A stretch of 46,652 nucleotides of DNA from Thermoanaerobaculia bacterium (GTDB lineage: Bacteria; Acidobacteriota; Thermoanaerobaculia; Multivoradales; JAHEKO01). Made by a program: the position numbers and the translations under genes. Within the stretch, counting starts at the first letter, position 1, and every line of letters begins with the position of its first letter. A model generated the notes under the pieces. That model was not told the DNA's origin. It did not search any database and saw only the letters and a program-made list of their open reading frames with translations. Shown piece by piece: positions 1-15,229 of the stretch. The DNA is taken from assembly GCA_945787575.1 (NCBI GenBank), contig CALZKB010000006.1, forward strand, positions 59,431 through 106,082, written 5' to 3'.

Positions 1-797
1 GTCGCTTCAGCCACGACGAGCCCCCAGCAAGCCAGAAACAGGGTGCCGGCAGTGACCCGGTGGGCGCGGGCCCAGGCGTCGGTCGCCTCGGAGCCGACCG
101 ACGCCAGTTCGCGCTCGCCGGTGCGATAAATCCGGGCCTCACCGCAACATTCGGGGCCGCGCAGCGGGGTTCCCGGGCTCCACGAGCTCGATTTCCAGAA
201 GTCGGCGGCGGCTGGCGCCTGCGGGCTGCGCGACCACGACACGTAGTCCCGAAAGGGGCGGGATGGCAGCTCCTCGTGGTGTCCGCGTCCGGTGATGGCG
301 TTGTAGCGGGCGAGCACCTCACGAAGCACGAGAGCGCTCGACCAGCCGTCGAGAAGCAGGTGATGACAGCTCCAGACGAACCGATGTTCGGTCTCCGAAG
401 TTCGCAGCAGCGTCCAGGACATGACAGGCGGCCGTCTAATCTCGAGCCCTCGCTGACGCATCGTGGCAAGCTGCCGAGCGAAGCGAGCCTCCTGGCTGGC
501 GACTGGAAGACCTCGCCAGTCCGCGTGGACCGCCGGCATCGTCGCCGCCGGGGCGACCACTTGAACGGGGTGCGGGAGGCTTTCCCAGTGCACCGAGCGG
601 CGCAGCTCCGGGTGGTGGGCGATCGTCTGGCACCAGGCTTCGTCGAGAGCGTCGACATGCAGCTTGCCGCGCAGCAGCCCCCGCATGAGGATCACACCGC
701 TGTCGGATTCGCCCATCCGAAGGCGGTGCAACAGGATCGCCTCTTGCAGCTCGGTGAGCCGATAGATGTCCTCAGCCGGTTTCTTCGCCGACACCAT
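1..797 (-). CDS. NRPS, N-terminal condensation domain (partial, runs off left edge)
   Basis: Only the first 265 codons are inside the window. Translating the minus strand from ATG at 797 gives an opening typical of a condensation domain (DIYRLTELQEAILLHRL) and then the catalytic motif HHLLLDGWS (HHxxxDGxS) about 130 residues in. The reading frame stays open to the window edge. It starts 18 bases after the stop of the NRPS at 816-5414, so it is probably the next module protein of the same operon. That upstream protein ends in an epimerization domain, so this C domain should be of the DCL type, accepting a D-configured upstream residue; that is inference from module order. A strong Shine-Dalgarno is not visible, which fits translational coupling. 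Release domains (TE or reductase) and the remaining modules must lie to the left. Confidence 0.93.
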   Translation of the reverse strand, partial: MVSAKKPAEDIYRLTELQEAILLHRLRMGESDSGVILMRGLLRGKLHVDALDEAWCQTIAHHPELRRSVHWESLPHPVQVVAPAATMPAVHADWRGLPVASQEARFARQLATMRQRGLEIRRPPVMSWTLLRTSETEHRFVWSCHHLLLDGWSSALVLREVLARYNAITGRGHHEELPSRPFRDYVSWSRSPQAPAAADFWKSSSWSPGTPLRGPECCGEARIYRTGERELASVGSEATDAWARAHRVTAGTLFLACWGLVVAEA

Positions 798-815
798 CAC
801 TTCACTCGCTTGCGA

Positions 816-3800
816 TCAAGGCTTGCCCGATTCCAGGCGGTCGAGGAGCCTCTCGAGATCGGCAGCCTCGAGCTCCGCCGCCGGAAAGTCAACGGTGGAG
901 ACGCCCCCGGCATCTTCGTCGAGACAGTGCTCGATGAGCGACTCGAGCTCCTCGATAAAGAGCCCGGCCACGCGCTCTATGGTCTCGCGGCGGTGCACGC
1001 CGAGGCAATAGGTCCACCGCGCCGACAGCCTCTCTTCCCGGATCGCGGCGTTGATCTCGAGCAGGTGCGAGCGGGCGTTGCGCGGGTCGCGGCAGGTCGC
1101 CTGAGCACCGTCGATCGGCTTCCACGGCGACCCGCCGGCGCTCCCGTCGACACGGCTCAAGAAGTTGAATAGAACCTGTGGCTCGGAGCGCTCGGCGAGG
1201 CGGGCGGCGGCCCTTCCGTCGCGGTCGAGGTAGCGCAGAACGCCGAAACCGCGACCGTCTCCGGGCACGGCTCGGAGCTGCTCCTTGATCGCCTGTATGG
1301 ACGGACCTGGGCCTTCGGCTCCGGCGAGCGACAGCTCGACCGGATAGGAGACGGTGAACCAGCCGACGGTGCGCGAGGTGTCGAGATCGTCGGGGCGACC
1401 GTGCCCCTCGACCGCCAGGCGCAGCTCGGTCCTGCCGCTCCAGCGTCGGAAGCCACGGACGAGGGCAGTAGCGAGGAGCTCGTCGACTCGGGTGCCGTAG
1501 GCGTTGTAGGTGCGGCGCAGCAGGGCGTCGGTGAGTCGTCGATCGAGCTCGACGTCGATCGTGCGGGCGTCGGCTTCCGACGGCGGTCGCTCGGGCTCGA
1601 AGTCGACCGGGATGTCGACGCCTTCGGCCGGGAGGGCGGAGAGCCAGAACTCGAGCTCGTCCGCCGGCTTGGCTGGGCCGGTCGAGTCCGCGAGGCTCGT
1701 CGCCCAACGCTGGAAGGAAACGGTCCGCGCCGGCAGGGTGACGGGCTCCCTCGACTCCAGCTGGCGGTAGGCCTGGTGGAGGTCGGCGAGCAGCGGCGGC
1801 CACGAAGCGAGGTCGACGACGAGATGATGAAGGCTGAGCAGAAGCTGATCGGGCGCGTGGGCGTCGCCTCCGTCCGCCAGTCGGATCCACGCAGCTCGCA
1901 GCAATGGGGGTTGCGCGAGGTCGAAGCCCGCCTGAATGTCGGCGAGGCTCCGCTCGCGAAGCGCGGAGCGCTCGCTCTCGGGCACCGAGGAGAGGTCGAC
2001 GACAGACAGCGGAGCGAAGACCGTTCCAACCGGCGCGATCTCCTGGCGCCACCGGTCGTCCGGCTCGCGCACGAACCGGGCCCGCAGCATGTCGTGATGG
2101 TCGATGCAGTGCCGCAGTGCGTCGGCGAAGCGATCGGCGTCGAAATCGCTCGGCAGCTCGAATAGCTGTGCCTGGTTCCAGTGGTGGAGCGCGACGAGCT
2201 GGCGGTCGAGGAACCAGGCCTGGATGGGCAACAGAGGGAGCTCGCCCGACGTCGGCCGATGATCGTCCCAGCTGCCTCCGGCCGCCTCGGCCACCGCGGC
2301 GAGCTCGGCGAGCGTCGGGTGAATGGCGACGTGCCGAGGCTCGATCGCGTAGCCCGCCTGGCGAATTCGGGAGACGACCTGGATGCTGAGGATCGAGTCG
2401 CCGCCGAGCTCGAAGAAGTTGTCGTGAAGACCCACGCGGGCGACGCCCAACAGTTCGCTCCAGATCGCCGCCAGCTCCCGCTCGACTCCGGTCCGCGGGG
2501 CGACGAAGCGATCGCGGCGCTCGGCGCTACCGCCGCTCGGTGCCGGCAAGGCGCGGTAATCGATCTTCCCGCTGGCGGTGTGCGGCAGCCGGGCGAGCAC
2601 GACGATCCGGTCGGGGATCGAGAAATCGGGAAGCCGCTCGCCCAACCAGTCCCGGAGTACCCCGCCCTCGAGGCGGGTGGGCATTTCGCGGGCGCCGTCA
2701 GGGGGAGCCACCCAGGCGACGAGCTGGGCGGGGGCCTCGCCAGCCGGGCGGATCGCGGCGACCGCGGCCTCGCCGATGTCCGGGTGTCGCCGGAGGCACT
2801 CTTGGACGCCCTCCGGCTCGATTCGGTACCCGCGAATCTTCACCTGTGAGTCGGTTCGGCCAAGGAAGAGAAGGCTGCCGTCGTCCCGGTAGCGCACTCG
2901 GTCTCCCGTTCGATAGGCTCGTTGTTCGCCGACCCCGTCGAGATCTAGGGTGACGAACCGCTCCGCCGTCAGTCGTTCGTGCCCGAGGTAGCCACGCGCG
3001 ACGCCGGCGCCGGCGATATAGAGCTCGCCGGCAACGCCGGTCGGGAGCGGCCGCTTGCGCTCGTCGAGTACATAGATCCGGGTGTTGGCGATCGGCCTGC
3101 CGATCGGCACCGGTCCCCGACCGTCCGCTTCGATGATCTCGTGCACGGTACTCCACACGGTCGCCTCCGTCGGACCGTACTCGTTGAACAGCCGAGTCGC
3201 GGGCAGAGCTGCGTGGTGGGCCCGAGCCAGAGACGGCGGGCACGCCTCTCCGGCGACGATGACCGTCTCCAGCGAGTCGAGAGTCCGCGAAGCGGCCTCC
3301 TCGAGCAGCACTTCGTATAGCGCCGGCAGGCAGAGAGTGTGGGTGATCCGGCGTTTGCGGATGGTCTCCGCGAGCGCCTCCAGGTCGCGCTCGATGCCGG
3401 GCTCGAGCACCAACGTACCGCCGGAGGTGAGCGTCCAGAAGATGCCGGCGACCGAACTGTCGAAGGCGAAGGAGGAGAGAAGCAGAAAGCGACCGTCGTC
3501 GCCCTCGTAGTGCCTCCGCCGAGCCAGGGTCGAAGAGACCAGGTTGCGCTGCGTGACCTCGACACCCTTGGGGAGCCCCGAGGAGCCGGACGTGTAGATC
3601 ACGTAGGCGAGCGGGTCCGCGGAGGCGACTGGCAGCGGCGCGGGGTGGCCGGCGACGATCGAGGAGAGCTCGGCGTCGCCGAGGAGCAGGTGCGAGGCGC
3701 CGGTCGAGGGCAGACGGCCGAGCAGTGGTTCTTGGGTCAAGACGACGGAGGGCGACGCCTCGTCGAGCATCGACCGGAGGTATTCGGGCGGGTAGCCGGG

Positions 3801-5414
3801 GTCGAGCGGAAGGTAGGCACCGCCGGCGGCGAGAATCCCGAGCATTCCCACGATGAGCTCGATCGAGCGCTCGGCGTGAAGGCCGACGAGCATTTCCTCT
3901 CCGACCCCGAGGTCGGTCAGCTGCCGAGCGAGATGCTCCGCGCGCCGGACCAGCTCGCTGTAGCTCACCGATTCGTTCCCGCACGTCACAGCCGTCCTCT
4001 CGCCCGCCCGCCGAGCCTCCTGTTCGACGAGCGCGTAGATGCCTGCATCCTCCGTCCCGTCGTCCCTGGTGTCGTTCCATTCGACGAGGATCCGGGTGCG
4101 CTCGGCCGGCGTGAGCATCGGCAGATCCCCCAGCCGGGAGTCCGGCTGTTCGACGAAGGCCGAGAGCAGTGCCTCGAGCTGCCGCGGGAGGCGCTCGGCA
4201 TCGGCGGGCTCGACGCGCGCTTCGTCGTAGACGAGAACGAGCTCGATCCGCTTCCCGGGAACGACGAGCAGGGCGAGCGGGTAGTTGCTCTGTTCGGCGA
4301 AGTCGAGGTCACGCAGCTCGAAACCGGCGTTACTCTCGAGCGAGCTCTGAGGGTGGTTCTCGAACACCACGACGCTGTCGAACAAGGGCTCACCTGCGCC
4401 CAGCTCACTCCAGCCCTGAACCGCCTGTAGCGGGCTCGCCTCGCGAGACTGTCGCTCGAGACCTCGATCCTGAAGCACTTGCAGCCAGGCGAAGAGCTCG
4501 GTTCGCGGGTCGATGCGCGCGCGCAGCGGCAACGTATTGATGAAGAGGCCGATCGCATTCTCCACCCCTTCCAGCTCCGGTGGACGACCGGCGCTGGTGA
4601 CGCCGAAGACGACGTCGTCGTCTCCCGAGTAGCAGCTGAGGAGCAGCCCCCAGGCGCCTTGAAAGATCGTGCTCAGGGTGATCCGCCGGTGGGCGGCCAA
4701 CGCGCGTAGGCGCGAACTGGTCTCCCGGCTCAATCTGAGGGCCGCCTGCCGCGCCCGAGCGGCGGTGCCGGTCTCCGGTCGTAAGATGTCCAACCGGTTC
4801 GGTTCGGTGAAGCCGGCGAGCTCGTTGCGCCAGTAGGCCTTGGCCCCCGCGGGGTCCTGGCGCGCATGCCAGGCGATGTAGTCGCGGAAGCGGAAGGGCT
4901 CGCTGAGAGCTCTCGGCCTCGATCCCGAATAAAGCGCCGACATCTCCCTCAGCAACAGACGTGTCGACCAGCCGTCGGCGATCAGGTGATGGAGGCTCCA
5001 GATCCAATGCCACTCGCGCTCGTCGATCCGGAACAGAGCCATCCGCATCAGCGGCGCCACCTCGAGGTCGAAACCGCGCGCACGGTCTTCGCGCAGGAAG
5101 GCGTCGAAGCGCTGCCTCCGGCTGCCCGGATCGAGGCCGCGCCAGTCGCGGACGTGCCACTCGAGCGCGGCGCGCTGGCGCACCACCTGCAGCGGTTCAT
5201 CCAGGCCGTCCCACAGGAAAGCCGTTCGCAGACTGGTGTGGCGAGCGACGAGCTGCTCCCAGACTCGCTCGAGATTGGCCTCGTTGAGTTCGCCTACCAA
5301 CAGAGCGCTGACCTGCGTGACGTAGACGCCAGGGGCCCCCGCGGCGGTATGGAAGAGCATCCCCTCCTGCATCGGAGAGAGAGCGTAGACATCCTCCACA
5401 TTCCCGAACTGCAT
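816..5414 (-). CDS. one-module NRPS, C-A-T-E
   Basis: 1532 residues. Condensation domain about 1-440 with HHLIADGWS at 142-150. Adenylation domain about 455-960 with YTSGSSGLPKG at 607-617, NEYGPTEATVW near 744-754, YRTGD near 834, and TASGKIDYRAL at the A10 position. Carrier domain with DNFFELGGDSI; Ser1007 would carry phosphopantetheine. C-terminal epimerization domain about 1055-1510 with HHLVVDLASW at 1196-1205, EGHGR, RTVGWF and VLFNFLSR. Aligned by eye to GrsA, the specificity residues are about D-S-A-L-I-A-E-V-W-K. I do not recognise this as a standard code; it shares seven positions with the published histidine code (DSELTAEVCK), so the substrate stays unassigned. The module should add one residue and invert it to D. 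The gene begins 12 bases after the stop of the upstream NRPS and belongs to the same operon. Confidence 0.96.
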   Translation of the reverse strand: MQFGNVEDVYALSPMQEGMLFHTAAGAPGVYVTQVSALLVGELNEANLERVWEQLVARHTSLRTAFLWDGLDEPLQVVRQRAALEWHVRDWRGLDPGSRRQRFDAFLREDRARGFDLEVAPLMRMALFRIDEREWHWIWSLHHLIADGWSTRLLLREMSALYSGSRPRALSEPFRFRDYIAWHARQDPAGAKAYWRNELAGFTEPNRLDILRPETGTAARARQAALRLSRETSSRLRALAAHRRITLSTIFQGAWGLLLSCYSGDDDVVFGVTSAGRPPELEGVENAIGLFINTLPLRARIDPRTELFAWLQVLQDRGLERQSREASPLQAVQGWSELGAGEPLFDSVVVFENHPQSSLESNAGFELRDLDFAEQSNYPLALLVVPGKRIELVLVYDEARVEPADAERLPRQLEALLSAFVEQPDSRLGDLPMLTPAERTRILVEWNDTRDDGTEDAGIYALVEQEARRAGERTAVTCGNESVSYSELVRRAEHLARQLTDLGVGEEMLVGLHAERSIELIVGMLGILAAGGAYLPLDPGYPPEYLRSMLDEASPSVVLTQEPLLGRLPSTGASHLLLGDAELSSIVAGHPAPLPVASADPLAYVIYTSGSSGLPKGVEVTQRNLVSSTLARRRHYEGDDGRFLLLSSFAFDSSVAGIFWTLTSGGTLVLEPGIERDLEALAETIRKRRITHTLCLPALYEVLLEEAASRTLDSLETVIVAGEACPPSLARAHHAALPATRLFNEYGPTEATVWSTVHEIIEADGRGPVPIGRPIANTRIYVLDERKRPLPTGVAGELYIAGAGVARGYLGHERLTAERFVTLDLDGVGEQRAYRTGDRVRYRDDGSLLFLGRTDSQVKIRGYRIEPEGVQECLRRHPDIGEAAVAAIRPAGEAPAQLVAWVAPPDGAREMPTRLEGGVLRDWLGERLPDFSIPDRIVVLARLPHTASGKIDYRALPAPSGGSAERRDRFVAPRTGVERELAAIWSELLGVARVGLHDNFFELGGDSILSIQVVSRIRQAGYAIEPRHVAIHPTLAELAAVAEAAGGSWDDHRPTSGELPLLPIQAWFLDRQLVALHHWNQAQLFELPSDFDADRFADALRHCIDHHDMLRARFVREPDDRWRQEIAPVGTVFAPLSVVDLSSVPESERSALRERSLADIQAGFDLAQPPLLRAAWIRLADGGDAHAPDQLLLSLHHLVVDLASWPPLLADLHQAYRQLESREPVTLPARTVSFQRWATSLADSTGPAKPADELEFWLSALPAEGVDIPVDFEPERPPSEADARTIDVELDRRLTDALLRRTYNAYGTRVDELLATALVRGFRRWSGRTELRLAVEGHGRPDDLDTSRTVGWFTVSYPVELSLAGAEGPGPSIQAIKEQLRAVPGDGRGFGVLRYLDRDGRAAARLAERSEPQVLFNFLSRVDGSAGGSPWKPIDGAQATCRDPRNARSHLLEINAAIREERLSARWTYCLGVHRRETIERVAGLFIEELESLIEHCLDEDAGGVSTVDFPAAELEAADLERLLDRLESGKP

Positions 5415-5426
5415 GGCGGCGCTCGT

Positions 5427-8400
5427 TTAGCTACCGCCTCGCCGAAGCGCAACCGAGAGCTTCTCGAGGCCGGCTTGGTCGAGGTTGGCGAGCGGGAAAT
5501 CGCTCGGAGAGACCTCGGCACCAGGTTCCTCGAGAGCGTGCTGGACGAGCCTACCGAGCTCCGTGAGAAGCTCGGTCGCGAGCCGCTCCACCGTCGCCGG
5601 TCGATGGCGCTTCCGACTGAACTCCCAGTCGATGTTGAGCCGGTCGCGATCGACCGCCGCATGGACCTCTAGGAGAAACGGCCGGCGGAGCGCGGCGGCG
5701 CGGGAGAGCTCGAGGGGGCTCTCGACCTGGAAGATCGAGTCGGCGGATGTCAGCCGGTCGAAGCGGCCGAGGTAGTTGAACAGAACTCCGAACCGCCGCC
5801 GTGCCCCCGAGGTCCGACCAAGCCCCTCGACACCGGCAAGGTAGCGAAGCAAGCCATAGCCGATTCCGTTCCCGGGCGTTGCTCGAAGCTGCTCTCTGAC
5901 CGAGCGCAGGACGCTTCCAGGAGAGCCCTCGTCCGGCAAATCGACCTGCACGGGGAAGAGAGTGCTCAGCCAGCCGACGGTCCGGCTGGCGTCGAGATCC
6001 GCTTCCACGACGTCGCGGCCGTGACCCTCGAGAAAGAGACCGATCGAGCGGCTCTCACACCAATGGGCGAGTGTCGCCACCAACGCGGTGACGAGAATCT
6101 CGTGTGTCCGGATCTGCTTCTTGGGCAGCTCCTCGAGCAGACCTCGGGTGAGCCGAGCGTCGAGGGTCGTCCGCACCGAGTCCGCGGTTGCCATCGTGTC
6201 GTCGGTCTCGGCGTCGAAGTCCAAGGGAAGCGGCGCCGCGTTGCGCCGTAGCGTCTGGCGCCAGTGGTCGAGTCCTTCGGTGACGTGAGGCGCGGTCGCG
6301 GCCCGGGCGAGCGCCGCGGACCACCGACTGATGCCGGTCACCGGCGGTAACCGCGCTTCCGTTCCCAGCTCGAGCTGCTCGTAAGCCGACCACAGGTCGT
6401 CGAGAAGGATCGACCACGAGACCGCGTCGACGGCCAGGTGATGGGCGACGAAGAGCAGCCGGCTGTCCGGGTTGCTGGCGACGAGCGCCACCCTCAGGAG
6501 CGGTGGTCGGTCGAGCTGGAAACAGCCGTCGATGCCGATCGCTTCGGCGGCCGCGCGGTCGACTTTGGGCGATCCGCCATGCTCGCCGCCGCTCGCGACG
6601 ATCAGGCGAGGGGTCGCTTCGACGACCTTCCGCTCGGCCACCCAGTGGTCTCCGTCGCGGTGGAACGCAACCCGCAGCGCTTCGTGGCGGTCGACGACGA
6701 CCGCCAGAGCACGCTCCAGCCGCCGCGGCTCGATCTCGGACGAGACCGTTACCGAGAGCACGTGGTTCCAGTGCTCGAACGAGAACTGCGCGTGGCTGAA
6801 GAACCAGTGCTGAGCCGGTGTGAGGTCGACGGGGCCGGCGTCCGTTTCCGCTTCCTCGGTCTGCTCGGCGGTGACGCACACCCGAGCCAGCTTCTCGACA
6901 GTCAGGGTGTCGAAGAGTTGTGCCGGCGTCAGATCGAGGCCGGCGCGATGACAGCGAGCGACGATCTGGATCGCCATGATCGAGTCGCCGCCGAGCTCGA
7001 AGAAGTCGTCTCTGACGCCAATTGTGTCGACTTGGAGCACCTCTTGCCAGATTCGAGCGATCGCCGTCTCGAGGCCCGTGCGCGGCGGAACGAGCTTCTC
7101 GGCGTTCGCCGGGCGGCCATCGGCTGGCGGCGCCAGTGCCGCGCGGTCGGCCTTTCCGTGGGCGGTCCGAGGGATCGCCTCGAGGCGGAAGAAGCGGGAT
7201 GGGATCATGAAGGCGGGCAGGGTATCGGCGGCGTAGTCGCGCAACTCCGCCGTCGGTATGTCGCTTGGGGAGGTGTAGTAGGCGACGAGGCGGTCGCCGC
7301 CGGCGCGAGCGGGCGAATCACCGCCGTAGCCGACCTCTTCGAGGATTCGCTCCACCTCTCGCGGGTCGATCTCGTCGTTGAGCTCGGCGAGCGCGGCCGC
7401 GCGGGTCTTGTGACCCATCCGCACGTCCCAGCTATAGGGCAGCGCATAGTTGTGGAAGCCGCGTTCGTGCTTGTGGACCCAGATGCCGACGTCGTTGATC
7501 CGGCAGTTGGTCGAGCGCCCGGTGTCCGACGGCCGTACCCACGGAACCCTCTCGTTCAGATAGCGCATGAGCTCGTCGAGATCGACCGCTACGTAGCGGT
7601 AGAAATCGATGAAGTGGACCTCGTCGAAGATTCGATCGTCGTCGAAGAGCCCGACGTCGAGGTGCCGGCGGACGGCGTCATCGACACGGTGATAGGCCTT
7701 CCTCGCCTCCAGGACGAACGAGTCGACGTCCTCCATCTCGAGCTCTGGGTCGGTGAAGAGCTCTTCGGTGAGACGGGTCTCGAAGAACTGGCCGCGCGAC
7801 AGGCCGGTGACGACGATGGGGATTCCGCGCCGCCGCGCCAGCTCCAAGGCGAGAGTGTAGATCGTCTTGAAGCAACCTTGGCAGACATTGGCGTGGCGCT
7901 CGAGACTGTCGACGAAGATGGCGTTCATCGCCGGGGTCGAGCCGAACTCGTGATCGACCCCCAACGCCGCGACCACCCGGCTAATGTTGGCCTTGGCCTG
8001 GTCCGAGATGAAGCCGTTGTCGAGGGTGAAGGCGAGTACCCGATAGCCCATGTCGACAAGCCAGCAGAGCATGTAGGTGCTGTCCTTGCCGCCGCTCAGC
8101 AGCGCGATGCAGTCGTAGTCGGTCGCCGTGCGGCGAGAGGTGTCGAGGGTCGCCCGGAGCTCCTCCGGCGACCGGAAGTAGCTCTGCGCACGCTGCGCGT
8201 AATGCTCGAACCTCCGGCATTGACTGCACACCCCGCTGGCGTCGAAGTCGATTCCCGGATAGTTGGAGGGAAGAGCGCAGCGGCTGCAGTAGGTGAAACC
8301 GTCGGCCGCTCCCGAGCGCCGCGCCCCGGTGACGGTGACGACGCATTGATCGATGTTCGGGTGGCCGAGGATCGCCGCCTCGACTTCGCCGAGCTCGATC

Positions 8401-11006
8401 CTCGCCCCGCGCACCTTGACTTGATCGTCGCGACGCCCGATGTGCTCGAGCACCCCCGGCGCGCACAGACGCGCCAGGTCGCCGGTTGCGTAGAGTCGGC
8501 CTCCGGGATCGAGCGGGCTCGCGACGAAACGTTGCGCGGTTTGCTCCGGGCGGTTGAGATACGAGTGCGCGAGGCCGGCTCCTCCGACATAGAGCTCACC
8601 GAGGACGCCTTCCGGGACCGGGCGCCGCTCTTCGTCGAGCACGTAAGCGCGGAGGCCAGCGATCGGCTTGCCGATCGGAACCGTCCCGGAGGTGTCTCGC
8701 CGCGGGTCGAAGGTGTGCACGATGCAACCGACGGTCGCCTCGGTCGGACCGTACTCGTTGTGCACCACCACGTCGTCACCGAAGAGAATCCGCGCCCGCT
8801 TCGCGAGCTTCGCTGTCAGCGCCTCGCCGCCGAAAATGAGCCGACTTACTCGCGACGGCTGGGGCGCGCGCTCGCGAAGCAGCGCCATGTGTGACGGCGT
8901 TAGCTTGATCACGTCGACGGCGTCGTCGTCGACGACCTCGAGCAGCGCGAGGTCGGCGCGACTCTCCTCGGGGTAGATGACGATCCGTCCGCCCGAGGCC
9001 AGCGGCACGAAGATCGAAGTCACCGTCAGATCGAAGGTCAGAGGCGAGAACAGAGGAAAGGCCAGACGCTTGTCACCGACGTAGTGCTCGCGAGCCCAGA
9101 CGACGTAGTTGGCCAGCGCGGAGTGCTGGATCACGACTCCCTTGGGCCTTCCAGTCGAGCCCGATGTGTAGAGAACGTAGGCGACGGACTCGGGATCGAT
9201 CGCAGCGTCACCAGGTTCAAAGTCAGCGAGACCGGGATCTACGCTGCTGGAGGTCGGATCGACGGTAATCACCAGCGGCCGTGCGCTCTCGGGCAGCTCG
9301 CGCTCGGTGCCCTGCCTGACGAGCACCGCGGAGACTCCGGAGTCTTCGAGCGCGAGAGCGATCCGACCATCCGGTAGCTCCGGGTCGATCGGGACGTAAT
9401 GAGCTCCGCTCTTGAGAACCGCGAGGATGGCGGTCACCGCCTCCACCGACCGCTTCATCATCACCGCGACGGCCGACCGCGGGCCGAGGCGCGACCGCAA
9501 CAACCTAGCCAGGCGATCGGTGCGGTGATCGAGCTCGCCGTACGAGACGATCTCCTCGCTGCAGACCAGGGCGGTCGCGTCGGGTGTCAGAGCCGCTTGC
9601 GCGGCGATCATCTCGACGACCGTTCCTGTCGAGTGCGGTGCGCCCGCGGCCGAGTTGAGGTCGCTCAACTGTTGCTCACGCTCCGCCGGCGCCAGTAGAT
9701 CTGCGCCCGAGATCGGCTGGTCCCAGTCGTCGAGCAGCGCGTCGACGAGCCGCTCGAAATGCCCCACGACCCGCGCTCGCCGTCTTGCGTCGAAGAGCTC
9801 GTCGTTCAGGTCGAAGAGTAGTCGAAAGCTGCCGCGGGCGTCGAAGTCGTGGAAGTGAAGGCGCAGGGCGTGCTCGCGGTCGTGATGACCGGGATGGAGC
9901 CACTCGCTGCGGACCGGCATGCCGGCGAAATCCCCGAACGAGCCGCGGATCGAGTTGAGGACCGCGCAGAAGCAGCGGTTGTAGCGTGGGTCGCTGGCTC
10001 CGGCCTTGGCGAACTTGAGGAACCCGAGGCTCTCGTTGCGCACGCGGCCGAGGAGCTGCCGGAAGCTCTCTCCCTCTTCGATCTCGACCGCGAGCGGAAA
10101 GGCCTCTGTGAAGAGGCCGGCGGTCTGCCGAAACTGGGCCGTCGGCCGGTTGTGGGAGAGGGCGCCAAGGCCGATTCGGTTCTGGCCGCCGATCCGGTAC
10201 TGATAGGCGAACAGCAGAGTCGCCATCAGGTTGAAGAGACCAAGCTCGAGGGTGAGAGCTCCAGCCTCGGGATTGTGGGCTAGGTCGCGGAGCGCCGCGG
10301 AGCGGTCGCCACCGAGATCGAGGCTGAGCCGGGTGCTCGCTGTCGACCCGGCCGGCTGCCGCCGGCCGTAGAGCCTAGGGGGAGAGAGATCGCTGTCGGC
10401 GTAGCGCCGCCAATGGCTCTGCGCGGCGGTGTCCGTGCGCGCCTCACGCTCGAAGGCGACATACGACGAGTAGTCGGGCAGCGCACGACGTGCGCCGCTG
10501 TCGTCCGCCTGCAGGCGCGCGTAGAGCTCGCTCAGGCGGCGAAAGAGGAGCGCCATCGACCAGGCGTCGGAGACGAGGTGATGTTGGGCAAGATAGAGGA
10601 TGAATCGCTCGCTCGACAGCCCCAAGAGCGCTGCGTCGAAGAGGCGTCGATCGAGCTCGAAGAGGCGCTCGCAGCGATCCTGTACGAGACGCCGGGCGAC
10701 ACTCGTGGGGTCTTTTTCAAAGGTGAGGTCGACGAGATCGAGGCGATCGTCGAGATCGTCGAGGACGAGCTGTCGCGGGGTGTCGCCATCGACCTCGATC
10801 ACGGTGCGCAAGGCGTCGCACTCCGCCACGAGCTGCGCGAATGCGCGGCGGAGCAGCTCCGGCTCGACGGCGCCCTCGATCGCGAAGGCGAAGGCCATGT
10901 TGTAGAGCGGTGCGTCCGGGTGGAGGCGCTGCCCGGTCCAGATCGCGAGCTGACTCCGGGTCAGGTTCGCGCGATCGGTTACCTCAGGAGCCGGCTTGCT
11001 GTCCAT
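5427..11006 (-). CDS. one-module NRPS with PP-loop domain inside the A domain, C-A(PP-loop)-T-E
   Basis: 1859 residues. Condensation domain about 10-440; its motif is HHLVSDAWS (142-150), with Ala where Gly is usual but His143 and Asp147 kept. Adenylation domain from about 465: YTSGSTGRPKG at 613-623, NEYGPTEATVG near 750-760, YATGD near 839, and A8 GRRDDQVKVRGARIELGEVE at 857-876. The A domain is then broken by a PP-loop domain (about 904-1230) and resumes at about 1239 with A9/A10 (TAHGKADRAAL 1281-1291). Carrier motif DDFFELGGDSI, Ser1342. Epimerization domain about 1395-1845 with HHLAVDAVSW at 1522-1531 and VLFNYLGRF. The specificity residues by eye are D-L-T-K-I-G-E-V-G-K, close to the published asparagine code (DLTKLGEVGK). 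The start overlaps the carrier-protein gene by 23 bases. The role of the insert is inferred; see its own entry. Confidence 0.96.
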   Translation of the reverse strand: MDSKPAPEVTDRANLTRSQLAIWTGQRLHPDAPLYNMAFAFAIEGAVEPELLRRAFAQLVAECDALRTVIEVDGDTPRQLVLDDLDDRLDLVDLTFEKDPTSVARRLVQDRCERLFELDRRLFDAALLGLSSERFILYLAQHHLVSDAWSMALLFRRLSELYARLQADDSGARRALPDYSSYVAFEREARTDTAAQSHWRRYADSDLSPPRLYGRRQPAGSTASTRLSLDLGGDRSAALRDLAHNPEAGALTLELGLFNLMATLLFAYQYRIGGQNRIGLGALSHNRPTAQFRQTAGLFTEAFPLAVEIEEGESFRQLLGRVRNESLGFLKFAKAGASDPRYNRCFCAVLNSIRGSFGDFAGMPVRSEWLHPGHHDREHALRLHFHDFDARGSFRLLFDLNDELFDARRRARVVGHFERLVDALLDDWDQPISGADLLAPAEREQQLSDLNSAAGAPHSTGTVVEMIAAQAALTPDATALVCSEEIVSYGELDHRTDRLARLLRSRLGPRSAVAVMMKRSVEAVTAILAVLKSGAHYVPIDPELPDGRIALALEDSGVSAVLVRQGTERELPESARPLVITVDPTSSSVDPGLADFEPGDAAIDPESVAYVLYTSGSTGRPKGVVIQHSALANYVVWAREHYVGDKRLAFPLFSPLTFDLTVTSIFVPLASGGRIVIYPEESRADLALLEVVDDDAVDVIKLTPSHMALLRERAPQPSRVSRLIFGGEALTAKLAKRARILFGDDVVVHNEYGPTEATVGCIVHTFDPRRDTSGTVPIGKPIAGLRAYVLDEERRPVPEGVLGELYVGGAGLAHSYLNRPEQTAQRFVASPLDPGGRLYATGDLARLCAPGVLEHIGRRDDQVKVRGARIELGEVEAAILGHPNIDQCVVTVTGARRSGAADGFTYCSRCALPSNYPGIDFDASGVCSQCRRFEHYAQRAQSYFRSPEELRATLDTSRRTATDYDCIALLSGGKDSTYMLCWLVDMGYRVLAFTLDNGFISDQAKANISRVVAALGVDHEFGSTPAMNAIFVDSLERHANVCQGCFKTIYTLALELARRRGIPIVVTGLSRGQFFETRLTEELFTDPELEMEDVDSFVLEARKAYHRVDDAVRRHLDVGLFDDDRIFDEVHFIDFYRYVAVDLDELMRYLNERVPWVRPSDTGRSTNCRINDVGIWVHKHERGFHNYALPYSWDVRMGHKTRAAALAELNDEIDPREVERILEEVGYGGDSPARAGGDRLVAYYTSPSDIPTAELRDYAADTLPAFMIPSRFFRLEAIPRTAHGKADRAALAPPADGRPANAEKLVPPRTGLETAIARIWQEVLQVDTIGVRDDFFELGGDSIMAIQIVARCHRAGLDLTPAQLFDTLTVEKLARVCVTAEQTEEAETDAGPVDLTPAQHWFFSHAQFSFEHWNHVLSVTVSSEIEPRRLERALAVVVDRHEALRVAFHRDGDHWVAERKVVEATPRLIVASGGEHGGSPKVDRAAAEAIGIDGCFQLDRPPLLRVALVASNPDSRLLFVAHHLAVDAVSWSILLDDLWSAYEQLELGTEARLPPVTGISRWSAALARAATAPHVTEGLDHWRQTLRRNAAPLPLDFDAETDDTMATADSVRTTLDARLTRGLLEELPKKQIRTHEILVTALVATLAHWCESRSIGLFLEGHGRDVVEADLDASRTVGWLSTLFPVQVDLPDEGSPGSVLRSVREQLRATPGNGIGYGLLRYLAGVEGLGRTSGARRRFGVLFNYLGRFDRLTSADSIFQVESPLELSRAAALRRPFLLEVHAAVDRDRLNIDWEFSRKRHRPATVERLATELLTELGRLVQHALEEPGAEVSPSDFPLANLDQAGLEKLSVALRRGGS
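7317..8297 (-). other. PP-loop (N-type ATP pyrophosphatase) domain inserted between A8 and A9/A10
   Basis: Residues about 904-1230 of the NRPS at 5427-11006. Order of motifs: CSRC (907-910) and CSQC (927-930), a likely zinc knuckle; SGGKDS (971-976), the pyrophosphate loop that adenylates a carbonyl oxygen; CQGC (1042-1045); TGLSRGQFFETRL near 1067; and STNC with Cys1168. The opening pattern (YCSRCALPSNYPG, then FDASGVCSQC) resembles N-acetyl sugar amidotransferases of the WbpG/PseA type. CxxC plus a distant third Cys is how TtuA/Ncs6-type tRNA thiolases hold a [4Fe-4S] cluster. Known members activate a C=O with ATP and replace the oxygen with sulfur or nitrogen. I infer a thioamide- or amidine-forming step on the residue loaded by this module. 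Domain edges are approximate. Confidence 0.88.
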
Positions 11007-11265
11007 CGTCGCCCTCCAGCGAACTCAGGTACGTGACGATGCCGCGAACCGTCATGAAGTGCTCGATCGTGATGTCGGCCGGAGGGATCGCCACGTCACA
11101 GCGACGCTCGAGGAAATCGACCAGTCGCATCACCCCGAGGGAGTCGATCAAGCCACTTGCGAGCAGGTCGGAGTCGGGCTCGAGCGCAACGTTTTCGCAA
11201 CTACCGATGAGCTCGGTCGAGACGAAATGCAGGATCGTCGCGGTGAGTTCGGAAGCGCTGGCCAT
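10984..11265 (-). CDS. free-standing acyl/peptidyl carrier protein
   Basis: 93 residues from ATG at 11265, which overlaps the stop of the upstream A enzyme in a TGATG junction, so translation is probably coupled; the longer open frame upstream lies inside that gene. The core SGLIDSLGVMRLV contains Asp41-Ser42-Leu43, the phosphopantetheine site. The size and four-helix pattern fit stand-alone carriers of the PltL/RedO or D-alanyl-carrier kind. Its placement directly after a single A enzyme suggests that the pair loads a starter amino acid and presents it to the first condensation domain of the NRPS that begins 23 bases inside this gene. The substrate is not known. Confidence 0.9.
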   Translation of the reverse strand: MASASELTATILHFVSTELIGSCENVALEPDSDLLASGLIDSLGVMRLVDFLERRCDVAIPPADITIEHFMTVRGIVTYLSSLEGDDGQQAGS

Positions 11266-12884
11266 CACGATAGCACCGGCGGCGCGCCGCTCGATTCGAT
11301 CGAGGTCTGCAGCCCGCGCCTGTCGATCTTGCCACTCGTCGTTCGCGGCAGGGTGTCCATCACCCTCGTGGTCTTGGGCACGGCGTACCATGACAAGAGG
11401 TCGGAAACAAAGTGACGCAGCTCTTCGGCCTCGACGGTGGCTCCGGGCCTCGAGGTCACCGCCGCGCCGAGATGATCGATCTCCTCACCGACGCGGATGG
11501 GAAACACCGCGGCCTCTTCGACCGCCGGATGGGCGGTGATGGTGCGCTCGATCTCGTCGAGCTCGACCCGGTATCCACGAATCTTGACCTGCCGATCCTT
11601 GCGCCCCAGGAACATCAGTTCGCCTTGCTCTTGGCGCCGCACCAGATCTCCGGTGCGATAGAAGACCCGCTCGTAGTTCGAGTCCACGCACTGGCGAAAG
11701 AACGCCTCGGCGTCGAGATCGGGCCGTGCCCAGTAGCCGAGCATCATGGTGGAGGAGCGGATCAACAGCTCGCCTTCCTTGCCGTCGGCAACGGGTTGAC
11801 CGGCCTCATCGACCACCAACGCCTCGGTGTCGTCCCAGGTTCTGCCGATGGGAATCGGGGCACCGTCGTCCTGTGCGCCCTCGCCGCGACGGGGCACGTG
11901 GTGGTACGTGCACTGGTTGACCTCGGCGGGGCCGTAGACGTTCGAAAAGCGAGCCTGCGGCCAGCGCGCCATCAGCGCCTCGACATGTTTGCGCGAGAAG
12001 GGCTCCCCGCCGAACAGCACCCATCTCAAGCTCTCGAGGTTGCGGGACTCCAGCACTCCGCGACCGAGCAGCTGGATCAGCGCCAGCGGCACCGAGTACC
12101 AGATGGTGAGGCGCTCGCTCTCCATCAGCTGCGAGAGGCTGGCCGCCATTTTGGTGTAGGCCTCGGGGATGAGCAGCGTCGTCGCTCCGGCGCACGGACC
12201 CGAGAAGTAGCCGAAGGTCGACATGTCGAAGTGGAGCGGGGAGTGGTTGCCGATCCGATCGCTTGGACCGACTTCGTAGGTCGCCACCGACAGCCGGGCG
12301 TAACTCATCCCGCTGCGGTGGCTGTGCATGATGCCCTTCGGCCGCCCGGTGGAGCCCGATGAGTACATGATGTAAGCGAGATCGTCTCCCGTCGTCGAGA
12401 TCGGCGGCGCCGAGCCGTCGGTCAGCTCGTCCAGGTCGCCCCACGGTCGCAGGCGAACACGCGCGCCGAGCTCGGCGCCTGGACCGGCGACGCCAGGGCC
12501 GACGATTGTCTGCAAGGCGGATCGCCGCTCGACGAGTCTGAGCAGCTGCGAAGCGAGGCTCTCGTGGGCCACGAGGTGCGCGATCCCGCAGTTGTCGACG
12601 AGACCGGCGAGGCCGCCAGGCGGCATCTGCGGGTCGATCGGCACGTAGGCAGCGCCGGCTTTGAGGATTCCGTAGACGGCGACTGCCGTCTCGAGGCATC
12701 GCGGCATGAAGATCCCGACTCGGTCTCCCGGCCGGACACCTTCGTCGAGGAGGAGGTGAGCCAGCTGGTTGGAGCGACGGGCCAGCTCGCCGTAAGACAG
12801 TCGCTCGCCGGGAGCGCAAAAGGCCTCGCCGTCCTCGGCGCGGTCGGCGGCATGGTCGACGAAGTGCGGTAGGAGGTAGATCAC
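11265..12884 (-). CDS. free-standing amino-acid adenylating enzyme (A domain)
   Basis: 539 residues, a complete A domain without condensation or carrier domains: LSYGELARRSNQLAHLL near the N-terminus, YSSGSTGRPKG at 174-184, FDMSTFGYF, GGEPF, NVYGPAEVNQ, YRTGDLVRR, GRKDRQVKIRGYRVELDEIE and TTSGKIDRRGL. It should make an aminoacyl-AMP and transfer it to the adjacent carrier protein. The layout recalls PltF/RedM-type ligases that load proline on a separate carrier, and the neighbouring cyclodeaminase-like gene could supply proline or pipecolate. The specificity positions (about D-M-F-Y-L-G-V-Q-C-K) are not a code I recognise, so that link is inference. It starts 12 bases after the cyclodeaminase stop. 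An acyl rather than aminoacyl substrate is possible. Confidence 0.92.
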   Translation of the reverse strand: MIYLLPHFVDHAADRAEDGEAFCAPGERLSYGELARRSNQLAHLLLDEGVRPGDRVGIFMPRCLETAVAVYGILKAGAAYVPIDPQMPPGGLAGLVDNCGIAHLVAHESLASQLLRLVERRSALQTIVGPGVAGPGAELGARVRLRPWGDLDELTDGSAPPISTTGDDLAYIMYSSGSTGRPKGIMHSHRSGMSYARLSVATYEVGPSDRIGNHSPLHFDMSTFGYFSGPCAGATTLLIPEAYTKMAASLSQLMESERLTIWYSVPLALIQLLGRGVLESRNLESLRWVLFGGEPFSRKHVEALMARWPQARFSNVYGPAEVNQCTYHHVPRRGEGAQDDGAPIPIGRTWDDTEALVVDEAGQPVADGKEGELLIRSSTMMLGYWARPDLDAEAFFRQCVDSNYERVFYRTGDLVRRQEQGELMFLGRKDRQVKIRGYRVELDEIERTITAHPAVEEAAVFPIRVGEEIDHLGAAVTSRPGATVEAEELRHFVSDLLSWYAVPKTTRVMDTLPRTTSGKIDRRGLQTSIESSGAPPVLS

Positions 12885-12896
12885 GAATCTTCGGGC

Positions 12897-14030
12897 CTAT
12901 CCGTCACCGGGTGCGTCCAGCCCGTCGGTCGGCGCCGTCTCTGGGTCGCCGTTCGCCGGCGGGAGGGTGTCCACAGTCGAGCTTTCGTCTCCCAGGAAAG
13001 CGTACGGATCTCGGGGGTCCGGTGCGGTCCCCTCGAGATCGATCTCCGACCCGATGCCGTAGGCACGAGCCCAGTCGAGCGCGAGCTCGAGCGCCGCCTG
13101 GTCTTCCAAGGCCCAGCCGGTCGAGTCGAAAACCGTCCGCTGCTCTCGTAGCGATTCGAACGCCTGCCTGTCGCGAGCAACCTCGGCGATTTCCGGACCG
13201 ATCGACATCGGCTCGAGCTGCTGGCACTCACCCTCGAGCCGAGCTTGCTCGAGAAAGTCGGGGCAGACGAAGCTCTCTTCGAGCAGCTCGCGAGGCACTT
13301 CGATCTTGCCCGGAAAATCCGAGCCCACGGCGTTGACGTGCAGCCACGCCTGGGTCTCGCAAGCCTGGAACACCGGACCCTGGTCGACTCCGACCGAAGT
13401 CGCGACGCAGAGGATGTCGGAGCGCGGTACTAGCTCCGACGGCGGTAGAGAATGGAACTCGACGTCGTTGGGCACCATCAGGGCCACCCGTGAGGCGAGG
13501 CTCGCTTCGACTACCGGATCGACGTCGTGGGTCAGGATCTCTTCGATCTCGAAGCTGCGGCAGATGGCGTGCACCTGGGTCACCGCCTGCGTGCCGCAGC
13601 CGATCACTCCCAACGTCCGGCTCTGCGGCGAGGCGAGCAACCGGCTGGCGACGGCCGACGCCGCCCCCGTTCTCATCGAGGTGAGCAAAGTGCCGTCGAC
13701 GATTGCTCGCAGATGACCGCTGTCGGTATCGTACGCTGCCAGCGTCGACAAGATCGTCGGCAGGTTCCTCTTTTCCGGGTTCTCGGGGTGGTAGCCGACG
13801 ACCTTGAGCAGCACATGGGAGCCCAGATCCATGAGCGGCATCCACTCGATGAGGCCGGGGGCCGGCTGGCGATAGTGGAACCCGCTGCGGACGGGAATCT
13901 GGGAGCGGCGCCGGTCGAACTTCGCGAACGCGTCCGTCAGTCGGACGACCAGCTCGTCGATCATCCGATCGCGACCGACCCGCCGGACGATCTCCTCGAG
14001 ATCTCGGCTCGACAGCAGAAGCGTTTTCAC
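12897..14030 (-). CDS. ornithine cyclodeaminase / mu-crystallin family enzyme
   Basis: 377 residues from GTG at 14030, chosen because it overlaps the stop of the HupE-like gene by 4 bases (GTGA); the longer open frame would lie within that gene. Lys76 in LLKVVGYHP, SMRTGAASAVAS around 118-129, the Rossmann motif GVIGCGTQA at 141-149 and VNAVGSDFPGKIEVP with Asp238 all match the OCD family. Family members are NAD-dependent: they convert ornithine to proline or lysine to pipecolate, or act as imino-acid dehydrogenases such as SbnB in diaminopropionate synthesis. No SbnA-like partner is in the window. In this operon it most likely supplies a building block. The last 40 residues are Pro/Asp/Gly-rich and probably disordered. 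Confidence 0.9.
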   Translation of the reverse strand: MKTLLLSSRDLEEIVRRVGRDRMIDELVVRLTDAFAKFDRRRSQIPVRSGFHYRQPAPGLIEWMPLMDLGSHVLLKVVGYHPENPEKRNLPTILSTLAAYDTDSGHLRAIVDGTLLTSMRTGAASAVASRLLASPQSRTLGVIGCGTQAVTQVHAICRSFEIEEILTHDVDPVVEASLASRVALMVPNDVEFHSLPPSELVPRSDILCVATSVGVDQGPVFQACETQAWLHVNAVGSDFPGKIEVPRELLEESFVCPDFLEQARLEGECQQLEPMSIGPEIAEVARDRQAFESLREQRTVFDSTGWALEDQAALELALDWARAYGIGSEIDLEGTAPDPRDPYAFLGDESSTVDTLPPANGDPETAPTDGLDAPGDG

Positions 14031-15229
14031 GACTGGATCCCTAGCGCCCGGGTGACGAACCAGTAGGTGGCCACGAGACTGATCGCGATCGAGCCGCCGG
14101 CGAGCACCGCCGGCCGGTAGATCGAGCTCTTGCGCAGCAGGAACAGGAGCGGGAAGACCGCCGCGACGATCGCCACCTGACCGACCTCGACTCCGACGTT
14201 GAAGGCAAGCACGACCTGAACGAGATTGGCCATCCTGAAGGGCAGATCCCCCATCACCGAAGCGAAGCCGAGGCCGTGGAAGAGACCGAAGAAGAAGATC
14301 ACGATCCAACTCCCCTCACGGAGCCTCGGGAAGATGTTGTTGAGAGCGATCAAGACGATGGAGAGGGCGATTACCGACTCGACGAGTCGACCCGGTAGCC
14401 GGACGAGATCGAGGGCTGCGAGGCTGAGAGTGAGCGAGTGCGCCACCGTGAAGAGCGTCACGATCTTGGCGACGTTCCACAACGCTTCGCGGAAGCCGGT
14501 GACCGGTTGCCACGCGGAGCGGCTCGTCGCTGTGGACGGCACGCCGTCCGCTCTCTCCTCCTTCCGCATCAGAACCGCAGTCAAGAGCAACGCGATGAGG
14601 AAGAGCACGTGGTCGATGCCCGCCCATATGTGGAGCATTCCCTGCCAAACGAAATCACGCACCCGCAGCAGCCCTCGAAGGTTGGCCAGGTCGAGAACCT
14701 GGTCACTGTTCGACCGGCTGAAGACGAGCGCGGTGAACTCTTCACCATAGTCCGATCCGTTGCGGCGGTCGTACTGGATGCACAGCAGGCTGCGGTGGAA
14801 ACGGTCGTCGTCGAGCAGGACGCGGTTACGAATCTCGAGCCGATCGGGGATCTCGGCTCGCGCGGTGCGGTAGAAGAACTGAGCGAAGCCGCCCAGGTCG
14901 CCGGCTTCGACGAGATCGATTCCCGTGAACTCATAGGGAATCTCCATCCCGTTCGAGACAATCGAGAAGCTCTGACGGAGGTATCGCTCGATCGGTCCTG
15001 CACTGCTCGCGACGGTCTCCTTGGCGGCTTCGCGGTCGGCGGGGAGATCGAGCCCGAAACGCCGTTCCAGATCGACGACTCGGATCTCGAAGCGCCCCTC
15101 GAGACGGGTCTCGACACCAGAGCCCTCGACGTTGAGCCATACGTAGTTCTCCCCCGTTGCGTGACCCCACGCGACGGTCGGGAAGAGGAGTCCCAACAAT
15201 AGTGCGGCCGTGAGGCTGTGGCTCCTCAT
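14027..15229 (-). CDS. HupE/UreJ-like membrane protein
   Basis: 400 residues. A signal peptide (LTAALLLGLLFPTVAWG) is followed by a soluble beta-rich region of about 180 residues and then six or seven membrane helices from about residue 190. HIWAGIDHVLFLIALLL, VTLFTVAHSLTLSLAAL and FFFGLFHGLGFASVMGDLP are the conserved His/Asp-bearing helices of the HupE/UreJ_2 family. HupE and UreJ relatives are linked to nickel or cobalt uptake for hydrogenase and urease; the large version with an exported N-terminal part is poorly characterised. It is the first clear gene of the NRPS operon and overlaps the next gene by 4 bases, which argues for a role tied to the product, such as metal handling or export. 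That role is inference. Confidence 0.88.
   Translation of the reverse strand: MRSHSLTAALLLGLLFPTVAWGHATGENYVWLNVEGSGVETRLEGRFEIRVVDLERRFGLDLPADREAAKETVASSAGPIERYLRQSFSIVSNGMEIPYEFTGIDLVEAGDLGGFAQFFYRTARAEIPDRLEIRNRVLLDDDRFHRSLLCIQYDRRNGSDYGEEFTALVFSRSNSDQVLDLANLRGLLRVRDFVWQGMLHIWAGIDHVLFLIALLLTAVLMRKEERADGVPSTATSRSAWQPVTGFREALWNVAKIVTLFTVAHSLTLSLAALDLVRLPGRLVESVIALSIVLIALNNIFPRLREGSWIVIFFFGLFHGLGFASVMGDLPFRMANLVQVVLAFNVGVEVGQVAIVAAVFPLLFLLRKSSIYRPAVLAGGSIAISLVATYWFVTRALGIQS

What the first reader, a model, noticed from the sequence alone, without database searches (positions are those of the whole stretch)
1..15229. Whole NRPS operon: cyclodeaminase, loose A and carrier, and one-module NRPS proteins ending in E domains
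Seven genes with overlaps or gaps under 20 bases form one unit. Order predicts starter (free A plus carrier, perhaps a cyclic imino acid made by the cyclodeaminase), then D-Asn-like (modified), then a D-residue of unassigned code, then more to the left. I cannot match this set to a known peptide.
Basis: partly seen in the sequence, partly recalled or inferred. Interest (0 to 1): 0.75.

Follow-up and report, generated by a model that had tools for sequence, protein, structure and literature searches.

The report
NRPS operon with nitrile-making adenylation domain
This is a bacterial assembly line that probably builds a small Pro-(modified Asn)-His peptide, with an extra ATP-using enzyme lodged inside the Asn-loading domain; the same gene set occurs in about ten bacterial phyla, its product is unknown, and genes that look like metal-uptake genes often sit beside it.

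Summary
The operon is real: seven minus-strand genes (HupE, cyclodeaminase, free A, carrier, three NRPS proteins) at 1-15229 with gaps of 15 bases or less. It is not whole: the third NRPS runs past the left edge and ends C-T-TE without an A domain. Predicted order: proline-type starter, Asn, His. The Asn A domain is interrupted between motifs A8 and A9 by a ~335-aa PP-loop domain. By size, SGGKD motif and Asn code it matches the AMDH (amide dehydratase/aminomutase) domain of albicidin AlbIV and cystobactamid CysH, which turns bound Asn into beta-cyanoalanine or isoasparagine. So the domain type is known; the cluster is not. One scan found 314 relatives; in 87 loci examined the same partners recur (carrier 75, HupE 63, free A 60, TonB receptor 43) across about ten phyla. 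New lead: besides zinc-type cysteines, a CxxC...C triad is invariant in all NRPS insertions examined but missing from true sugar amidotransferases. It resembles the [4Fe-4S] ligands of LarE/TtuA and would explain why purified CysH is brown. A metallophore role is a guess.

The parts
14027..15229 (-). HupE/UreJ_2 membrane protein, first gene of the unit
   Evidence: PF13795 E 5.9e-47; only copy in this genome; HupE present in 63 of 87 related loci
12897..14030 (-). Ornithine cyclodeaminase-family protein (GTG start), probable L-proline supply
   Evidence: PF02423 E 3e-52; start and 4-base overlap with HupE; conserved D238 in GSDFPGK, 27/27
11265..12884 (-). Free adenylation protein, code DMFYLGVQC, probable proline loading
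   Evidence: PF00501 and PF13193; code
10984..11265 (-). Free carrier protein (PCP)
   Evidence: PF00550; ATG at 11265
5427..11006 (-). NRPS1: C-A(interrupted)-T-E, Asn code DLTKIGEV(G)
   Evidence: Pfam; code; motifs HHxxxD, GGDS, A10 Lys present
7302..8315 (-). AMDH-type PP-loop domain inserted in the NRPS1 A domain between A8 and A9
8079..8096 (-). PP-loop SGGKDS (insertion residues 74-79)
   Evidence: invariant in all rows
7872..7883 (-). CxxC (insertion residues 145-148), proposed Fe-S ligands
   Evidence: 89/89 NRPS insertions, absent from true NASATs, aligned with the CxxC of [4Fe-4S] LarE
7503..7505 (-). Cys 271 of the insertion, proposed third Fe-S ligand
   Evidence: 89/89 NRPS insertions, absent from true NASATs
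816..5414 (-). NRPS2: C-A-T-E, code DSACIAEVW, His-like
   Evidence: Pfam; code
1..800 (-). NRPS3, N-terminal half of its C domain; continues outside the window as C-T-TE (C6:57707-59430)

Best explanation
A short NRPS line. OCD makes L-proline (inferred). The free A domain loads it on the free carrier (inferred from code and context). NRPS1 activates L-Asn (from its code). The PP-loop domain lodged in its A domain activates the side-chain amide of carrier-bound Asn with ATP and removes water, giving beta-cyanoalanine; the alternative product is isoasparagine (reaction shown for CysH in the literature, inferred here). The E domain turns the residue to D. NRPS2 adds His and epimerises it. The A-less C-T-TE protein releases the chain, or joins it to a residue loaded in trans. 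The likely core is Pro-D-cyanoAla-D-His, possibly glycosylated. The inserted domain probably carries a [4Fe-4S] cluster on C145, C148 and C271 besides a zinc site on its first four cysteines (inferred). HupE and, in relatives, TonB receptors suggest that the product handles a metal ion (inferred, weaker).
For: Insertion between A8 and A9 of about 335 residues with SGGKDS; an Asn-type code in all 86 interrupted A domains read. AlbIV has the same Asn code and a 342-residue SGGKD insertion; CysH loses 18 Da from bound Asn only with its AMDH domain, and is brown. His-like code. Cys triad invariant in 89/89 and in a 60-row set, absent from true NASATs. Profile hits [4Fe-4S] LarE first; fold closest to NASAT, then LarE, nitrile synthetase ArtA and others. 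Partner genes recur.
Against: CysH and AlbIV could not be aligned with the insertion here. PMC7966384 looked only for CxxCxxxC and reports no Fe-S site in CysH. Third-Cys geometry was not measured. No TonB, acyl-CoA dehydrogenase or classical chelator gene was found on this contig stretch. HupE is common in the phylum.
Confidence: 0.62

Rival explanations
1. The inserted domain works as an aminomutase, so the second residue is isoasparagine, not cyanoalanine.
For: CysH does this after beta-hydroxylation by CysJ.
Against: No oxygenase gene was found in the operon; without CysJ, CysH dehydrates Asn.
Confidence: 0.14
2. The inserted domain is a sulfur transferase: it uses sulfide on a [4Fe-4S] cluster, as TtuA or LarE do, to turn the Asn side-chain amide into a thioamide, a soft-metal ligand.
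For: CxxC...C triad, LarE as first profile hit; metal-type neighbours.
Against: Albicidin and cystobactamid, made with the same type of domain, carry nitrile or (iso)asparagine. A shared site does not show sulfur transfer.
Confidence: 0.1
3. The inserted domain is a sugar-type amidotransferase (NASAT/WbuX) that makes an amidine from Asn.
For: Best family name is TIGR03573; best fold is 8wex, Z 20.3.
Against: 133.7 bits against a cut-off of 203.2; catalytic-region residues differ and the Cys triad is missing from true NASATs; no ammonia-supplying partner is in the operon.
Confidence: 0.06

Closest known systems
Cystobactamid CysH, AMDH domain (PMC7966384)
   Same: A PP-loop domain with SGGKD inserted in an Asn-activating A domain, acting on carrier-bound Asn
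   Different: CysH is a stand-alone A-T module with partner CysJ; here the module is C-A-T-E in a Pro-Asn-His type line with HupE
Albicidin AlbIV (PMC12283262, PMC8949500)
   Same: Asn code DLTKIGEVGK and a 342-residue insertion of the same superfamily
   Different: Stand-alone A-T module serving another line; different peptide
N-acetyl sugar amidotransferase, LpNASAT 8wex (PMC10607449)
   Same: Overall fold, zinc-type tetracysteine, PP-loop
   Different: Lacks the CxxC...C triad; acts on sugars; below family cut-off
[4Fe-4S] LarE / TtuA sulfur insertases
   Same: PP-loop plus CxxC at the matching place; fold Z about 11 to 13
   Different: Stand-alone; substrate and overall body differ; cluster not shown here
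QueC family cluster 5, subcluster 1 (PMC13329287)
   Same: Very large multidomain proteins (900-2603 aa), mostly Flavobacteria, beside WbpG in sequence space; probably these NRPSs (inference)
   Different: NRPS and nonribosomal do not occur in that paper's main text, so the link is not drawn there

Membership tests
AMDH-interrupted Asn adenylation domain (CysH/AlbIV type) | PP-loop domain of about 340 aa with SGGKD inside an A domain | tested here: met
AMDH-interrupted Asn adenylation domain (CysH/AlbIV type) | Asn specificity code in the host A domain | tested here: met
   DLTKIGEV in the window; Asn-type in all 86 read
AMDH-interrupted Asn adenylation domain (CysH/AlbIV type) | Sequence homology to CysH or AlbIV AMDH | not tested
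   Neither sequence was held in reach of the tools
AMDH-interrupted Asn adenylation domain (CysH/AlbIV type) | Dehydration or isomerisation of bound Asn | not testable with these tools
   needs intact-protein mass spectrometry
N-acetyl sugar amidotransferase (TIGR03573) | Score over the curated cut-off | tested here: not met
   133.7 against 203.2 bits
N-acetyl sugar amidotransferase (TIGR03573) | Zinc-type tetracysteine and PP-loop | tested here: met
[4Fe-4S] PP-loop sulfur insertase (LarE/TtuA type) | PP-loop with CxxC and a third Cys | tested here: met
   the place of the third Cys in 3D was not checked
[4Fe-4S] PP-loop sulfur insertase (LarE/TtuA type) | Bound [4Fe-4S] cluster and sulfur transfer | not testable with these tools
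   needs purified protein
Ornithine cyclodeaminase (PRK07589 type) | Score over the curated cut-off | tested here: not met
   177.4 against 350 bits; family membership PF02423 holds, so function is inferred
NRP metallophore cluster | Known chelator pathway or TonB-type uptake gene in the cluster | tested here: inconclusive
   TonB receptor in 43 of 87 related loci; none found on this contig stretch with one query

The most novel reading that the evidence does not exclude
A multi-phylum NRPS family makes nitrile- or thioamide-bearing Pro-Asn*-His peptides that carry nickel or copper into cells via TonB and HupE, and the AMDH domain is a new class of [4Fe-4S] PP-loop enzyme built into an adenylation domain.
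Probability: 0.2. Interest if true: 0.85.

Novelty: new variant of a known kind. Interest (0 to 1): 0.6.

Why it matters
The AMDH domain makes nitriles on an assembly line, and its mechanism and metal were left open when it was described (PMC7966384). The invariant CxxC...C triad gives a direct hypothesis for both and for the brown colour of CysH. The cluster family is widespread, sits in named strains (Leptolyngbya, Zobellia, Maribacter, Arenibacter) and has a predictable three-residue core, so its product and role can be sought now.

Tried and rejected
The amidotransferase label from the family hit was rejected: the score is under cut-off and the catalytic region differs. Searches with PP-loop, thioamide or amidotransferase terms found no precedent; it came through the specificity codes. 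Homologues of the acyl-CoA dehydrogenase, TonB receptor and small His-rich protein were sought on C6:19500-106082 with one query each and no hit was printed (no positive control was run). A centre in Gammaproteobacteria was not accepted, so AlbIV-like genomes could not be searched. A first comparison with stand-alone proteins used poorly chosen frames for those proteins and was replaced; one search failed to load them. HupE is not specific to the cluster: 117 of 396 Acidobacteriota genomes carry at least one. The counts come from one phmmer/BLAST clustering of partly truncated loci and are lower bounds.

Full report
Observation. The window is C6:59431-106082 of assembly G000. Seven minus-strand genes form one unit at 1-15229, with junctions of -4, +12, -1, -23, +12 and +15 bases. 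NRPS1 and NRPS2 are each C-A-T-E. The contig continues left: after an 84-base N run NRPS3 ends in T and TE, without an A domain, followed by a UGT-like glycosyltransferase (C6:56322-57710) and a sulfatase-family protein (C6:54167-56311). The next genes read as small and large subunits of a NiFe hydrogenase (my reading of the translation, not scanned).

The interrupted domain. The A domain of NRPS1 is split between A8 and A9 by about 335 residues (7302-8315). They hit TIGR03573 at 133.7 bits, under its cut-off of 203.2. A search of 396 genomes of the phylum found eight further loci at 59-63% identity, seven of them in open frames over 1400 aa, then a sharp drop to stand-alone proteins at 37% or less among the full-length matches. 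One scan of bacterial and archaeal genomes gave 314 relatives; the best 80, at 57-69% identity, were kept. By their record titles they come from ten groups: Bacteroidota, Cyanobacteriota, Actinomycetota, Acidobacteriota, Chloroflexota, Gemmatimonadota, Planctomycetota, Verrucomicrobiota, Rhodothermota and Pseudomonadota; many are metagenome bins. A quick tree puts the NRPS insertions in one clade apart from the stand-alone ones, largely grouped by phylum (the careful search did not finish and several branches are long). The window's nearest row is L051, then Acidimicrobiia.

Substrates. Codes read against PheA: the interrupted A is DLTKIGEV in 72 of 86, DLTKVGEV in 9, the other five one residue away from DLTKIGEV. 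The last letter came out as C in that alignment; by eye it is G. This is the Asn code. Downstream A domains read DSACIAEVW, DSAMIAEVW and close variants in most of 64; DSALIAEVWK is listed for His-activating domains (PMC12283262). The free A (DMFYLGVQC) resembles, from memory, proline ligases of pyrrole pathways; acyl-CoA dehydrogenases, which in such pathways oxidise carrier-bound proline, accompany 32 of 87 loci, though none was found here. The cyclodeaminase keeps the Asp in GSDFPGK in 27/27, which from my knowledge of the family is the catalytic one.

Precedent. PMC12283262 and PMC8949500 describe albicidin AlbIV: Asn code DLTKIGEVGK and a 342-residue SGGKD insertion, proposed to turn Asn into cyanoalanine. 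PMC7966384 shows this for cystobactamid CysH: bound Asn loses 18 Da only when the AMDH domain is present; after hydroxylation by CysJ it is isomerised to isoasparagine instead; the protein is dark brown; the mechanism is unknown; homologues sit in Asn A domains of many unassigned clusters. No CysJ-like gene was found in this operon, so dehydration is the more likely outcome. The insertion is therefore most likely an AMDH domain. I could not align it with CysH or AlbIV.

A lead on mechanism. Beyond the zinc-type cysteines shared with NASAT (PMC10607449), C145, C148 and C271 are invariant in 89/89 NRPS insertions (two of these rows are the same contig) and in a 60-row set that includes a 39%-identical Streptomyces copy. 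Proteins over the NASAT cut-off lack all three; a few other stand-alone PP-loop proteins have them. A profile of the insertion hits 8cnz first (E 1.4e-7), aligning both PP-loop and CxxC; 8cnz is [4Fe-4S] LarE. The AlphaFold model (pLDDT 89.4) is closest overall to NASAT (Z 20.3); [4Fe-4S] LarE, nitrile synthetase ArtA and others tie far below at about 12 to 13. I read this as a NASAT-like body with a LarE-like cluster site. The geometry was not measured.

Neighbours. In 87 loci: carrier 75, HupE 63, free A 60, TonB receptor 43, acyl-CoA dehydrogenase 32, a small His-rich protein 32, OCD 26, glycosyltransferase 18. An A-less C-T-TE protein recurs in several loci. Two alphaproteobacterial plasmids hold HupE, carrier, acyl-CoA dehydrogenase and free A together; in Roseovarius the interrupted NRPS is the next gene, and in Pseudohalocynthiibacter the insertion lies beside them in DNA without a listed gene. 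HupE as such is common in the phylum (117 of 396 genomes), but this genome has one copy and it is here. A metallophore is a fair guess, no more.

Verdict. The kind is known; this cluster family and its product are not matched to anything I found, with the limit that no cluster database was available.

Noticed in passing
L161:14089-18139 (Streptomyces sp. NBC_01216 plasmid NZ_CP108680.1): A 39%-identical PP-loop domain at the N-terminus of a separate condensation-type protein, next to an uninterrupted A-T protein, asnB and a tyrosine aminomutase gene: the domain also occurs outside an A domain.
   Followed up: partly
C6:50495-53427 (L009), left of the window: Genes that read as NiFe hydrogenase small and large subunits directly after the operon's downstream genes; with HupE at the other end this may hint at nickel, or be chance.
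   Followed up: no
L021, L022, L023-L026, L155: Stand-alone PP-loop proteins in Acidobacteriota that share the CxxC...C triad with the NRPS insertion and are not true NASATs; function unknown.
   Followed up: partly
window 34439-36754: Fusion of an APH-type phosphotransferase domain with a class-III aminotransferase.
   Followed up: no
window 22239-24335: Caspase-like (Peptidase_C14) protein with a DUF4384 domain.
   Followed up: no
G000:C345 (L011), 3195 bases: A short contig of the same genome holds another condensation-domain fragment, so a second NRPS may exist.
   Followed up: no
L074:11484-11951 and 31 similar loci: Small protein of about 155 aa with His-rich stretches, in many Flavobacteria just downstream of the interrupted NRPS and before the TonB receptor; no Pfam match.
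   Followed up: partly
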